From Caldivirga sp. MU80 (GTDB taxonomy: Archaea > Thermoproteota > Thermoprotei > Thermoproteales > Thermocladiaceae), in contig NZ_LCTF01000001.1 of NCBI RefSeq assembly GCF_001663375.1, positions 1 to 64,000 on the forward strand: a stretch of DNA of 64,000 nucleotides, written 5' to 3'. Shown here piece by piece: positions 9,065 to 26,270 of the stretch. Positions within the stretch are counted from its first letter, which is position 1, and every line of letters begins with the position of its first letter. The notes beneath the pieces are model-generated. The model was not told where the DNA came from and did not search any database. It saw nothing but the letters and a program-made list of their open reading frames with translations. Both the position numbers and the translations under genes were made by a program.

Positions 9065-10099
9065 ATGTCATCTGGAGGTGGTTTATTAACGTCAACGCTG
9101 CTCAACACCACAGGCCTAGAGTTATCCGGTGAGGTGGCTGAGAAGTTTAAGGGTAAGGTACTTGATACCATAATAGTTGGTGGTGGACCAGCTGGGCTCA
9201 ACGCGGCCATATACGCGGCTAGGTTTGGGTTAAGTTCAATAATCATAACTGAGGAGGTTGGTGGGCAGGTTGGTAAGGCTGGTTGGGTTGAGGACTACCT
9301 AGGCTACACTAGGATAACTGGACCTGACCTAGTGAATAAATTTGAGGAGCACGTTAAGTACTACAACGTGCCAATACTGCTTGATTCAGTGGAGAAGGTG
9401 GTTAAGGAGGGTGAATTATTCAGGGTGATCACGGTATCCGGCGACGAATTTACCTCTAGGACCGTTATAATTGCTGTTGGTGAGAAGAGGAGGAAGCTTA
9501 ACGTACCTGGTGAGGATAAGTATAACGGTAGGGGTGTTAGCTACTGCGCACCCTGCGATGCACCATTATTTAAGGATAAGGTGGTCGCCGTGGTTGGCGG
9601 TGGTGACTCGGCGGCATCGGCAGCGTTGCTGCTAACTGAGTACGCAACTAAGGTTTACATGATACATAGGAGGGATAAGTTAAGGGCACAGCCTATATAC
9701 CAGGAACTTTTACTTAAAAATAACAAGATAACCATAATATGGAACACGGTGGTTAAGGAGCTTAAGGGTGACAAGGTGCTTAAATCGGCGGTACTGCAGA
9801 GGGTTGACACTGGGCAGATTACCGAGCTACCCATAGACGGCATATTCGTTGAGATAGGGGCTGAACCACCCATCAATTTCTTTAAGTCAATGGGCCTTGA
9901 ACTTGACGGCAACGGTTACATAGTAGTGAACCACATGATGGAGACCAGTGTTAAGGGCGTATACGCAGCCGGCGACTGCGTGAGCCTAACACCAAGGGGG
10001 TTTAGGCAGATAATAGTGGCCGCGGCCCAAGGTGCCCTAGCAGCCTACTCAGCCTATAACTACATACTCACTAAGTATGGTCAGAACAGGGAAAAGTAA
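9065..10099 (+). CDS. trxB: Thioredoxin reductase
   Basis: This is a flavoprotein that passes electrons from NAD(P)H to thioredoxin-like proteins. It has the FAD motif VGGGPAGLNAAIYAAR, the redox pair CAPC in SYCAPCDAP, the nucleotide motif VVGGGDSAASAALLL and the C-terminal FAD motif GVYAAGDCV. The N-terminus carries about 27 extra residues before the FAD domain. The TATA box GGTTTATAAG near 9034 fits a leaderless start at ATG 9065. HRRDKLRAQ after the second nucleotide motif points to binding of the extra phosphate of NADPH. Confidence 0.94.
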   Translation: MSSGGGLLTSTLLNTTGLELSGEVAEKFKGKVLDTIIVGGGPAGLNAAIYAARFGLSSIIITEEVGGQVGKAGWVEDYLGYTRITGPDLVNKFEEHVKYYNVPILLDSVEKVVKEGELFRVITVSGDEFTSRTVIIAVGEKRRKLNVPGEDKYNGRGVSYCAPCDAPLFKDKVVAVVGGGDSAASAALLLTEYATKVYMIHRRDKLRAQPIYQELLLKNNKITIIWNTVVKELKGDKVLKSAVLQRVDTGQITELPIDGIFVEIGAEPPINFFKSMGLELDGNGYIVVNHMMETSVKGVYAAGDCVSLTPRGFRQIIVAAAQGALAAYSAYNYILTKYGQNREK

Positions 10100-13807: not shown

Positions 13808-13888
13808 AGCTAGGCGTTAGGCACCTAAACCATGGTGAATATAACCACCAATGAGCATTACTAATGGGTTTAATCGGCATCATGGGTA

Positions 13889-13901
13889 AAGTTTAAATAA
13901 T
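13889..13901 (+). promoter_or_regulatory. TATA box of the split tRNA half
   Basis: AAGTTTAAATAAT is a good archaeal TATA/BRE sequence. Counting about 25 bases puts the transcript start near 13921, just before the GC-rich leader. This position leaves no room for a complete tRNA, which is a main reason to call the next feature a separate tRNA half. Confidence 0.65.
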
Positions 13902-13920
13902 TGCTGTGGTACATTAGGTT

Positions 13921-13983
13921 AATTGGCCGACGCCCAACCGGCCCGCCGGTGACTCCCGGGTTCAAATCCCGGCGGCCCCACCA
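13921..13983 (+). tRNA. 3' half of a split tRNA (acceptor CGGCCCCA-CCA; Gly-like, Pro possible)
   Basis: Bases 13956-13972 form a perfect T-arm (CCGGG, TTCAAAT loop, CCCGG). They are followed by the 3' acceptor strand CGGCCCC, discriminator A and an encoded CCA (13981-13983). Upstream are a variable loop and GCCGG or CCGGT, the 3' strand of an anticodon stem. The 5' acceptor strand (GGGGCCG), D-arm and anticodon are absent. Instead there is a GC-rich leader, GGCCGACGCCCAACCGGCCC (13925-13944), preceded by its own TATA box. This is the layout of split tRNA genes in Caldivirga, where leaders of separate transcripts pair before splicing by the tRNA endonuclease. The sequence best fits tRNA-Gly; the partner transcript(s) were not seen in the window. 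Confidence 0.8.
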
Positions 13984-14095
13984 GGAATCTTTGTTTCAAC
14001 ACTGCTTAATCAATGTTTGAGTGTTTCCCGTGGGTATAGGATGAATAGTGCAGTGGGGTAGGTTTTTATAAAGGTTTTGTGGGGTGTGGGTTTTG

Positions 14096-15601
14096 ATGGG
14101 TGTGGGTGGGTTGGTTTGGGTTGTTTTGTTGATTGTATTGGCTGTTATCTTGGTGACAGCTCTAATACTCCCCACAGTGCATGTTGCCAGTAAGCAAGGC
14201 ACGCCGGCGAAGGCTAACTCCAATGCACCAACGCCAATAAGCCCACCAATTAACACCAGCCTAAATACGCCAATTTACGTCATCGGCCCACAATCACTAA
14301 CCCAAAGACTAATCAACACCGGCATACCACAATCACTGATTAGGTTCATTACTGTCCACAACTTATCCCTCGTTCCCCCTGGCTCCGTGGTTGTTATTGA
14401 TTGGGGCTACTTACTGAGTTACCTCGGCAACAACGCATCCTTAGTCATAGACTCGCTGAATCCATTACTTAAGGGTGAGGATTTAGTCATTATTGCTGTT
14501 CCAAGCCCAGGCAAGGCACCAATAGCCTTTAACGCATTGGCCATTGCGTGGGCTAGGGCTTACGGTAGTAAATTCACAATGTCTCCAGCAATTGGTGGAT
14601 TATACGTGGCGGCCTTCGGTAATAACCACAGCCTAATATTCACAGCAAGTTATAGTGCCAAGGGAATAATAGGTTTCGTAAACGAGTACGAGAACATTAG
14701 GGAGGCATGGGCTGAGACGGCACAGGAAACTGAGGCAAACCTAAATCTAGGTATTTATGAAGACCAATTAAGCCCAGGCACAAACATGTTAGACCCATGT
14801 TTCGGCTCCAACCTTCAAAATGGTACCTATGAATTAGCGTTTGGCTACGTACCCATGTATGATGGTGTAGATTTGCTGGCTTACAGTGATGGAAACGGAT
14901 CTTTCCTTTATGACACCTGCATTTTCATTCACAAGGATTTAATCAATGCAAGCGGCGTTCTCGAGTATGCCATAAACCCCGCTGTGTGGTTCGCTTACAT
15001 TCCAAGTAATGCAATAATTAGGAATGGTGGTCGTATACAGTATTTCATTGGTACGTTTGATCACGAGAGCGGTTGGATTGATTACGTGTATCATTACGAT
15101 AAATATCTAGGAACACCCATAAACTCATACACTGAGTATACTCCTCCCTCGGCAAGTCCATCGTCTACATATGGTGAAGCATCATCGGTGCATGTGATAC
15201 AGGAAAACACAGGCGGTACTAGTAATTACGCCTTAGTTAATAACACTTGGTATTTCTACTTAAGTGGCCCTGAGATGGTGAATCAACCATACTCGGTTGC
15301 TTACGCAGAAGCTGCTACGTGGGCCTTGCCTCAGGGTAATGAGACCTCCCAGACAGCCATTTTGTTTGAGGAGTTTGGTGTGAAGTTATTAACAGCCCGC
15401 TTGGTTAAGTTTCAGTTCCTATTTATCTGCTACGTGGAATATGACCACGAGTTTGTATGGACGGACTTCGCGTGGGTGCTCCATTACTCACCTAAGTCCG
15501 GCATGAGTGCCAGTGGTTTGATAATTAATCAGCAAAGCCCATACTACGTCAGTGGTATCTCCTCATACAACCAAACTGTGTACGTAGGTTGCCTAACCTA
15601 A
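14096..15601 (+). CDS. Secreted or membrane-anchored protein of unknown function
   Basis: About 501 residues. An N-terminal hydrophobic helix (VWVVLLIVLAVILVTALIL) is followed by a Thr/Pro/Asn linker and then a large extracellular domain with many N-glycosylation-type sites. The part from about residue 60 to 200 alternates strands and helices (PIYVIG, SVVVIDWGYLLSYLGN, DLVIIAVPSPG). The rest is beta-rich with aromatic residues and a few cysteines. The N-terminal half resembles the protein at 34001-35422, suggesting a small paralogous family. ATG 14096 is preferred over GTG 14084 because TTTTTATAAAGG lies near 14063-14073. Confidence 0.75.
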   Translation: MGVGGLVWVVLLIVLAVILVTALILPTVHVASKQGTPAKANSNAPTPISPPINTSLNTPIYVIGPQSLTQRLINTGIPQSLIRFITVHNLSLVPPGSVVVIDWGYLLSYLGNNASLVIDSLNPLLKGEDLVIIAVPSPGKAPIAFNALAIAWARAYGSKFTMSPAIGGLYVAAFGNNHSLIFTASYSAKGIIGFVNEYENIREAWAETAQETEANLNLGIYEDQLSPGTNMLDPCFGSNLQNGTYELAFGYVPMYDGVDLLAYSDGNGSFLYDTCIFIHKDLINASGVLEYAINPAVWFAYIPSNAIIRNGGRIQYFIGTFDHESGWIDYVYHYDKYLGTPINSYTEYTPPSASPSSTYGEASSVHVIQENTGGTSNYALVNNTWYFYLSGPEMVNQPYSVAYAEAATWALPQGNETSQTAILFEEFGVKLLTARLVKFQFLFICYVEYDHEFVWTDFAWVLHYSPKSGMSASGLIINQQSPYYVSGISSYNQTVYVGCLT

Positions 15602-25295: not shown

Positions 25296-25406
25296 CCTCC
25301 CAGTGCCGTCTACGGGGCTGACTCCCTTCGAGGACACGGGGGAGTTTCATTGGGTGTCTCCCTCTGCCTCGCGACTGCTCATCGGCTTCACAGTGGCACT
25401 CTCCAA
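25296..25406 (-). ncRNA. GC-rich structured RNA candidate
   Basis: The stretch is far richer in G and C than the surrounding intergenic DNA. On the minus strand AGTGCC (25400-25395) pairs perfectly with GGCACT (25307-25302), closing about 90 bases that hold more stems, among them GACAC with GTGTC. A strong TATA box, GGTTTATAATG, at 25428-25437 lies about 27 bases before the closing stem. I could not fit it to tRNA, SRP RNA or RNase P RNA. The plus strand is the 3' flank of the hydrolase gene, with a T-run at 25289-25294, so a 3' end structure is the alternative. Confidence 0.42.
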
Positions 25407-25649: not shown

Positions 25650-26270
25650 GTGAGCACCCACACCTGCGATAGGGGTGAACTGGAGAACGCGATTAACCAG
25701 TTGATAATGGATGATTTAGTTAATAATATTCAAAACATAAGCCCTAACGAGATTAGGGTATTAGCATCCTTTGCTAAGGACGACTTCATAATCTACATCA
25801 GGACTCTCCACGGGGGTGGGTCCCTGAACTACCTATGTAGACTTTATAGGAGGGGTAAGCTAAGTGATTTCATTAATGAGTGGGTTAGCCTATGGATAGT
25901 TAAGTGGAGGCAGAGGGTTAAGTTAATGTTCCGTGAGGACCAGGAGATGCAGGAGGCCGCAGACCTAGATGACCTAAAGATGATTGGCAAGAGGGTGGTG
26001 GGTAAAATAAGTAGGATCATTAGGAGGGCCTTAATTGAAAACAACGAAATATGTGGTATTGATGCAGTCTCCAATTACCTAACCGTGCAGTTCCTAAGGG
26101 AGTTAATAGACCTATACGGCGTGACCAAGGTCCGTGAAATGATTAAGACAAGTGACCCCAATGTACTGTCATACGTGGTTTCCAGGGTTAGTGACATTGC
26201 CAGGTCACAGCAGCCACTGGTCATACTGTTCCTCAAGATAGATGAGAGGAGGCAATTATTCATGTATTAG
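25650..26270 (+). CDS. Helical protein of unknown function
   Basis: The 206-residue protein is predicted mostly helical and soluble, with basic and acidic patches (IVKWRQRVKLMFREDQEMQE) and no known motif. I do not recognise it. The GTG start follows a strong Shine-Dalgarno GGAGG, which is uncommon for first genes in this genome, and the site lies in a hairpin. Genes of this kind, alone and with few relatives, are often lineage-specific. Confidence 0.6.
   Translation: MSTHTCDRGELENAINQLIMDDLVNNIQNISPNEIRVLASFAKDDFIIYIRTLHGGGSLNYLCRLYRRGKLSDFINEWVSLWIVKWRQRVKLMFREDQEMQEAADLDDLKMIGKRVVGKISRIIRRALIENNEICGIDAVSNYLTVQFLRELIDLYGVTKVREMIKTSDPNVLSYVVSRVSDIARSQQPLVILFLKIDERRQLFMY

What the first reader, a model, noticed from the sequence alone, without database searches (positions are those of the whole stretch)
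13889..13983. Stand-alone 3' tRNA half with its own promoter: a split tRNA gene
The sequence holds a perfect T-arm, 3' acceptor strand, discriminator base and encoded CCA, but no D-arm, anticodon or 5' acceptor strand. A TATA box 25-30 bases upstream fixes a transcript too short for a whole tRNA, beginning in a GC-rich leader (13925-13944). This is the architecture of split, including three-piece, tRNA genes described in Caldivirga. The Gly-like acceptor fits the known tri-split tRNA-Gly, but that identity is an inference.
Basis: partly seen in the sequence, partly recalled or inferred. Interest (0 to 1): 0.85.

Follow-up and report, generated by a model that had tools for sequence, protein, structure and literature searches.

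The report
Split proline tRNA gene in Caldivirga
A heat-loving archaeon keeps one of its proline tRNAs as two separate genes on different contigs, whose RNAs can pair through a 15-base perfect match and would be stitched together; its close relatives still carry the same tRNA as one gene with an intron, so the split looks recent.

Summary
The orphan 3' tRNA half is real: exon 13944-13983, leader 13925-13943, BRE/TATA box 13888-13899. It is a split tRNA gene, but not tRNA-Gly and not shown to be three-piece. Its acceptor (CGGCCCC, A73) matches the genome's two intact tRNA-Pro genes; tRNA-Gly here uses CGGCCGC. The missing isoacceptor is tRNA-Pro(GGG). Its 5' half, complete to nucleotide 37 with anticodon GGG, lies on contig C15 (6722-6684, minus strand), followed by a trailer whose 15 nt (C15:6640-6654) are an exact complement of leader 13925-13939. 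Both halves have promoters typical of this genome's tRNA genes. The halves fit a bulge-helix-bulge junction at 37/38, except that the 5' bulge carries about 30 extra nt that resemble the ancestral intron. Three congeners keep an intact tRNA-Pro(GGG) with a 37/38 intron between conserved neighbours. In this genome the upstream neighbours stay beside the 5' half, the downstream ones are gone, and the 3' half sits elsewhere. This is therefore an intron-containing gene that was split within Caldivirga. Split tRNA-Pro is absent from the published lists I could read. Weak points: no RNA data, a draft genome, and a six-nucleotide variable loop.

The parts
13888..13899 (+). BRE/TATA promoter element AAAGTTTAAATA of the 3'-half gene; predicted start of transcription near 13922-13926
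   Evidence: 13.2 bits on a PWM of 40 tRNA promoters of the same genome (median 13.5), 37 nt before the leader (tRNA genes 34-38); 0.04% of window positions as good at that spacing
13925..13939 (+). leader segment GGCCGACGCCCAACC, exact reverse complement of the trailer of the 5' half on contig C15 (6640-6654)
   Evidence: 15/15 match; longest run in 20,000 shuffled pairs was 12
13925..13937 (+). outer trans helix h' of the proposed BHB (13 bp with TTGGGCGTCGGCC of the 5' half)
   Evidence: sequence; model evaluated
13938..13941 (+). central-helix strand CCGG (pairs with CUGG, nucleotides 32-35 of the 5' half); same tetranucleotide as in the cis intron of the intact G001 gene
13942..13944 (+). 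3' bulge CC|C; predicted endonuclease cut between 13943 and 13944
   Evidence: alignment to 29 cis introns with C38 in 27 of 29; cut itself inferred
13944..13983 (+). 3' exon of tRNA-Pro(GGG): nucleotide 38 to CCA (C38, GCCGG, six-nucleotide variable loop TGACTC, T-arm, CGGCCCC, A73, CCA)
13990..13996 (+). TTTGTTT just after the exon, possible termination signal (weak)
   Evidence: sequence only

Best explanation
This is the 3'-half gene of a two-piece split (trans-spliced) tRNA-Pro(GGG) in a Caldivirga species. It is transcribed from its own promoter. Its leader pairs with the trailer of a separately transcribed 5' half (contig C15:6722-6640, minus strand). The paired ends form a bulge-helix-bulge-type junction at position 37/38, which the tRNA splicing endonuclease would cut; a ligase would then join nucleotide 37 to C38 to give tRNA-Pro(GGG) for CCC/CCU codons. 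The gene arose when an intron-containing tRNA-Pro(GGG) gene, still intact in congeners, was broken inside its intron: the 5' half stayed at the ancestral locus and the 3' half with the last intron bases moved. Shown: both halves, the exact complementarity, both promoters, the absence of an intact Pro(GGG) gene in the assembly, intact orthologues and the synteny break. Inferred: transcription, pairing in vivo, cleavage, ligation and aminoacylation.
For: Rfam tRNA search plus ARAGORN on the own genome give intact Pro(TGG) and Pro(CGG) but no Pro(GGG); a 29-base 5'-Pro pattern finds only three GGGGCCG genes, the third being the C15 half. The C15 half has anticodon GGG, then trailer GGTTGGGCGTCGGCC complementary to 13925-13939. 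BLAST of the 3' half and leader in five Caldivirga genomes at E<=1 shows that segment matching nothing else in this genome. No 15-nt run arises in 20,000 shuffled pairs, maximum 12. Duplex energy is -48.4 versus -33.5 +/- 4.2 for shuffles (1 of 2000 as low); Pro5/Pro3 is the best partner in its row and column among four 5' and four 3' pieces. Promoters score like tRNA promoters for both halves, 13.2 and 14.9 bits. 29 distinct introns at 37/38 of tRNA-Pro(GGG) in relatives: the central helix CUGG/NNNN has 3-4 pairs in 26, and C38 in 27; the window half carries CCGG-CC|C-GCCGG, matching G001's CCGG-TG|C-GCCGG. Genes on both sides of the intact gene are conserved in G001, G002 and G003; at C15 only the upstream genes remain. 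CCC+CCT are 270 of 659 Pro codons in window ORFs >=250 aa, so the isoacceptor is needed.
Against: No transcript data. The genome is a 94%-complete draft, so an intact copy in the missing part cannot be wholly excluded. The 5' bulge of the modelled junction is 33 nt instead of 3. The 3' exon has a six-nucleotide variable loop (TGACTC, TGATC in G001), unusual and possibly a sign of decay or a sequencing error. The free-energy minimum of the trans complex differs from the strict BHB fold.
Confidence: 0.91

Rival explanations
1. The 3' piece is an attachment-site or recombination scar: a mobile element that integrates into a tRNA-Pro gene left a copy of its 3' end, with no function.
For: Archaeal elements do integrate at tRNA 3' ends; a contig of this same assembly (C21) carries a tRNA-Arg 3' end at both termini. 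A mobile element has been blamed for tRNA splitting in Caldiarchaeum (PMC3293823).
Against: A scar has no reason to carry a tRNA-type promoter at tRNA spacing nor a leader exactly complementary to the only orphan tRNA-Pro 5' half. No integrase among the flanking ORFs tested, no notable flanking repeats, and no exact match of the half in IMG/VR.
Confidence: 0.03
2. Former split tRNA now decaying: the six-nucleotide variable loop has inactivated it and Pro(GGG) is supplied by an unseen intact copy.
For: One-base insertion in the variable loop relative to intact orthologues; 5.5% of the genome is missing.
Against: Leader, H strand, T-arm, acceptor and promoter are intact; no intact GGGGCCG...GGG gene in the assembly.
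Confidence: 0.05
3. Tri-split tRNA (three transcripts), as the first reader suggested for tRNA-Gly.
For: Tri-split tRNA-Gly exists in C. maquilingensis (PMC4390854), and this genome has orphan Gly 5' and 3' pieces.
Against: The C15 half already contains nucleotides 1-37, and its trailer pairs directly with the window leader; acceptor and A73 are those of Pro here, not Gly.
Confidence: 0.01

Closest known systems
Bi-split tRNAs of Caldivirga maquilingensis (Gly(CCC), Glu(UUC), Ala(CGC), Ala(UGC); Fujishima 2009, listed in PMC4390854)
   Same: Same genus; halves with own promoters, complementary leader/trailer and a BHB-type junction; intervening sequences related to introns of relatives.
   Different: Conversely Ala(CGC) and Ala(UGC) are intact here.
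Recently split tRNA-Asp(GUC) and tRNA-Lys(CUU) of Desulfurococcales (Chan 2011, PMC3218864)
   Same: Recent splits inferred from intact orthologues in relatives; break of synteny at the tRNA-Asp; Asp halves joined at the canonical 37/38 site.
   Different: There the halves are adjacent or 4.5 kb apart; here they lie on different contigs, the 3' half 13.9 kb and the 5' half 6.6 kb from the nearer contig end.
Split tRNAs of Nanoarchaeum equitans (iMet, His, Lys, Gln, Glu x2)
   Same: Trans-spliced halves with complementary leaders.
   Different: No tRNA-Pro in the published set (PMC4390854); N. equitans has a reduced genome, this one does not.
Tri-split tRNA-Gly of C. maquilingensis
   Same: Orphan 3' half in the same genus.
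   Different: Here two pieces suffice, and the isotype is Pro.

Membership tests
split (trans-spliced) tRNA | 5' and 3' halves encoded at separate loci, together giving one complete tRNA | tested here: met
   C15:6722-6684 (nt 1-37) plus window 13944-13983 (nt 38-CCA)
split (trans-spliced) tRNA | complementary trailer/leader next to the exon ends | tested here: met
   15/15 nt complement; none longer than 12 in 20,000 shuffles
split (trans-spliced) tRNA | bulge-helix-bulge (strict or relaxed) at the junction | tested here: inconclusive
   h 5 bp, H CUGG/CCGG 4 bp, 3' bulge 3 nt and h' 13 bp are present; the 5' bulge is 33 nt rather than 3
split (trans-spliced) tRNA | separate promoter for each half | tested here: met
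   13.2 and 14.9 bits, tRNA-like spacing
split (trans-spliced) tRNA | no intact gene for that isoacceptor | tested here: met
   (within a 94%-complete assembly)
split (trans-spliced) tRNA | half transcripts and joined mature tRNA observed | not testable with these tools
   no RNA data
tri-split tRNA-Gly | three transcripts, Gly identity | tested here: not met
   partner holds nt 1-37; acceptor is that of Pro
mobile-element attachment-site remnant | copy of an intact tRNA 3' end beside an integrase or element, with no promoter or leader | tested here: not met
   promoter and complementary leader present; no integrase in the flanking ORFs tested, no notable flanking repeats

The most novel reading that the evidence does not exclude
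The 5' half keeps the whole ancestral cis intron as well as a trans-splicing trailer. Removing exactly 30 nt (CGTCAGCCCCGTTGACTAGCCGACACGGAG) from it leaves a textbook hBHBh' with the 3' half (5 bp, 3-nt bulge, 4 bp, 3-nt bulge, 13 bp). The tRNA would then be made by nested splicing: one cis event inside a half and one trans event at the same 37/38 site.
Probability: 0.2. Interest if true: 0.78.

Novelty: new member of a known kind. Interest (0 to 1): 0.62.

Why it matters
Whether split tRNAs are ancient relics or recent products of broken, intron-containing genes is an old dispute. Here one genus shows both states of the same gene at the same locus: intact with a 37/38 intron in three species, split in a fourth. 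The break lies inside the intron, and the last intron bases are still on the 3' half. This supports 'late' splitting and can be tested with existing DNA and small-RNA methods. It also adds proline to the isotypes known to be trans-spliced (in the literature I could read) and shows that the set of split tRNAs changes between congeners.

Tried and rejected
A strict cloverleaf 5' pattern was too narrow and missed even the intact Pro genes. tRNA-Gly identity rejected by acceptor sequence. Attachment-site scar rejected by promoter plus leader. I looked for the ancestral downstream block (CYTH, MFS) in this genome: only a 29%-identical MFS relative. The window locus was compared with the G001 locus holding the nearest relative of ORF 14084-15601: no shared gene order, so how the 3' half reached its present place is unknown. 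Assembly chimera rejected: the break in C15 lies in unique intron sequence, not in the repeated tRNA part, and a chimera cannot create a leader complementary to another contig. Arg(UCU) was first taken for an orphan 3' piece; its 5' part lies about 190 nt upstream on the same contig.

Full report
What is there. Window 13888-13899 holds AAAGTTTAAATA. At 13925-13943 lies a GC-rich leader, GGCCGACGCCCAACCGGCC, and at 13944-13983 the 3' part of a tRNA: C38, anticodon-stem strand GCCGG, variable loop TGACTC, T-arm CCGGG-TTCAAAT-CCCGG, acceptor CGGCCCC, A73, CCA. Neither ARAGORN nor Rfam reports a tRNA in the window.

Organism. The window is contig C1 of a 2.26-Mb, 86-contig, 94%-complete draft. Another, G001, is one contig of 2,077,567 bp, which by my memory is the size of C. 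maquilingensis IC-167. The window is therefore taken to be a Caldivirga.

Identity. The own genome has intact tRNA-Pro(TGG) on C30 and tRNA-Pro(CGG) on C86, both with GGGGCCG/CGGCCCC and A73 and an intron. The orphan tRNA-Gly 3' piece on C83 ends CGGCCGC. Of the standard archaeal set, Pro(GGG) and the three Gly isoacceptors have no intact gene, and Glu(UUC) is split; Thr(TGT) is intact on C61. The window half is therefore the 3' half of tRNA-Pro(GGG).

Partner. A third GGGGCCGTAGTCTAGCCTGG site lies at C15:6703-6722, minus strand. It reads GGGGCCGTAGTCTAGCCTGGTTAGGATGCCGGCCTGGGG (nt 1-37, anticodon GGG), then CGTCAGCCCCGTTGACTAGCCGACACGGA, then GGTTGGGCGTCGGCC. The last 15 nt are the exact reverse complement of window 13925-13939. 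BLAST over five Caldivirga genomes found that leader segment matching nothing else in this genome. In 20,000 dinucleotide-preserving shuffles of the two flanks the longest complementary run was 12. Duplex energies show each of the Pro, Glu and Arg halves pairing best with its own partner.

Promoters. A PWM from 40 intact tRNA genes of this genome (consensus AAAGCTTAAAAA) gives the window half 13.2 bits and the C15 half 14.9 (tRNA median 13.5), at 37 and 35 nt from the RNA start (tRNA genes 34-38).

Junction. In relatives, tRNA-Pro(GGG) widely carries a 37/38 intron: 29 distinct introns were read, and two further relatives are intronless (L086, L092). Nucleotides 32-35 (CUGG) pair with four bases near the intron's 3' end (4 pairs in 17 introns, 3 in 9, 2 in 3), then two bulge bases, then position 38 (C in 27 of 29). 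The window half has CCGG-CC|C-GCCGG, as G001 has CCGG-TG|C-GCCGG. With the 13-bp trans helix this gives h-B-H plus h'. The 5' bulge is GG|C plus 30 nt that resemble the 5' part of the cis introns (CCCCG motif). Two readings follow. (a) The 30 nt loop out, as the loop does in the relatives' short introns, and cleavage is one-step (preferred, about 0.7 given a split). (b) The 30 nt are a retained cis intron excised separately, which would leave a perfect hBHBh' (about 0.2). The free-energy minimum differs from both; energies at 37 C for a hyperthermophile RNA, without protein, limit that test.

History. In G001, G002 and G003 the intact gene sits between the same genes: upstream a DUF998 gene, a conserved 131-aa gene and a CDP-archaeol-synthase-like gene; downstream CYTH, MFS and more. 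At C15 the upstream genes are in place (75%, 90% and 76% identity to G001), but directly past the 5' half comes a V-type ATPase subunit A gene. The 3' half lies elsewhere (contig C1), 100 nt before an ORF with no recognised family. The G001 MFS gene has only a 29%-identical relative in this genome. The break is thus derived in this lineage and lies inside the intron. What moved the 3' half is unknown; no integrase in the flanking ORFs tested and no notable flanking repeats were found. A mobile-element route was proposed for Caldiarchaeum tRNA-Thr (PMC3293823).

Literature. Split tRNAs listed in PMC3218864, PMC4033280 and PMC4390854 are Gly, Glu and Ala (C. maquilingensis); iMet, His, Lys, Gln and Glu x2 (N. 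equitans); and Asp and Lys (Desulfurococcales). No proline is listed. The 2009 primary paper is not held, and papers outside the library may exist.

Doubts. No RNA evidence; a draft genome; the six-nucleotide variable loop (TGACTC against TGATC); and the oversized 5' bulge. None of them explains the exact complementarity, the promoters and the missing intact gene better than a split tRNA does.

Noticed in passing
L082 751-1017 (contig C2, about 9750-10016): tRNA-Arg(UCU): 5' and 3' parts 189 nt apart; the 3' part has its own TATA-type promoter scoring level with the best intact tRNA gene (17.6 bits) and a leader CCCCGCGGACCGT nearly complementary to the 5' part's trailer ACGGCTCCGCGGGG. Probably a second, adjacent-type split tRNA (like A. 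pernix tRNA-Asp), otherwise a long intron.
   Followed up: partly
L074 (C68, 5' piece on the minus strand near 26060-26080) and L048 (C25:9241): Split tRNA-Glu(UUC): trailer CGGCGCCGACCACCA is the exact complement of leader TGGTGGTCGGCGCCG; split in the D-arm region. Same isoacceptor as the known split in C. maquilingensis.
   Followed up: partly
L079 (C65:10400) and L057/L080 (C83:79059): Orphan tRNA-Gly 5' piece and 3' half as in the tri-split tRNA-Gly of C. maquilingensis; middle pieces were not searched for.
   Followed up: no
L036, L040, L043: All three tRNA-Ala isoacceptors are intact with introns here, whereas Ala(CGC) and Ala(UGC) are split in C. maquilingensis (PMC4390854): the split state differs between congeners in both directions.
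   Followed up: partly
contig C21, 7-80 and 14895-14968 (L051, L052, L084): 15-kb contig whose two ends carry the same tRNA-Arg-like 3' end with a degenerate 5' side: probably a circular or integrating element with a tRNA attachment site.
   Followed up: no
L056 (contig C9:9521): Orphan tRNA-Arg-like 3' piece with a leader like that of the C2 Arg(UCU) gene and a further intron-like insert after the anticodon; no 5' half seen in the roughly 400 nt upstream. The fetched stretch is 54% G+C, possibly a foreign contig.
   Followed up: no
window 14084-15601: 505-aa ORF without a recognised family, 100 nt after the 3' half; its nearest G001 relative lies about 140 nt from tRNA-Gln(CTG), and a fragment lies beside tRNA-Ala in G004. 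Possible gene family that travels with tRNA loci.
   Followed up: partly
window 25297-25360 (minus strand): Rfam match to Sso133 (Sulfolobus sRNA133), 48 bits, above the gathering score.
   Followed up: no
tRNA-Pro(GGG) introns in relatives (e.g. L087, L096, L104, L153, L170, L175): A hairpin pairing anticodon bases GGGG (34-37) with CCCC in the intron recurs widely in Thermoproteales and Desulfurococcales relatives, with some compensating changes in the next pair. It competes with the splicing helix and may hide the anticodon before splicing.
   Followed up: partly
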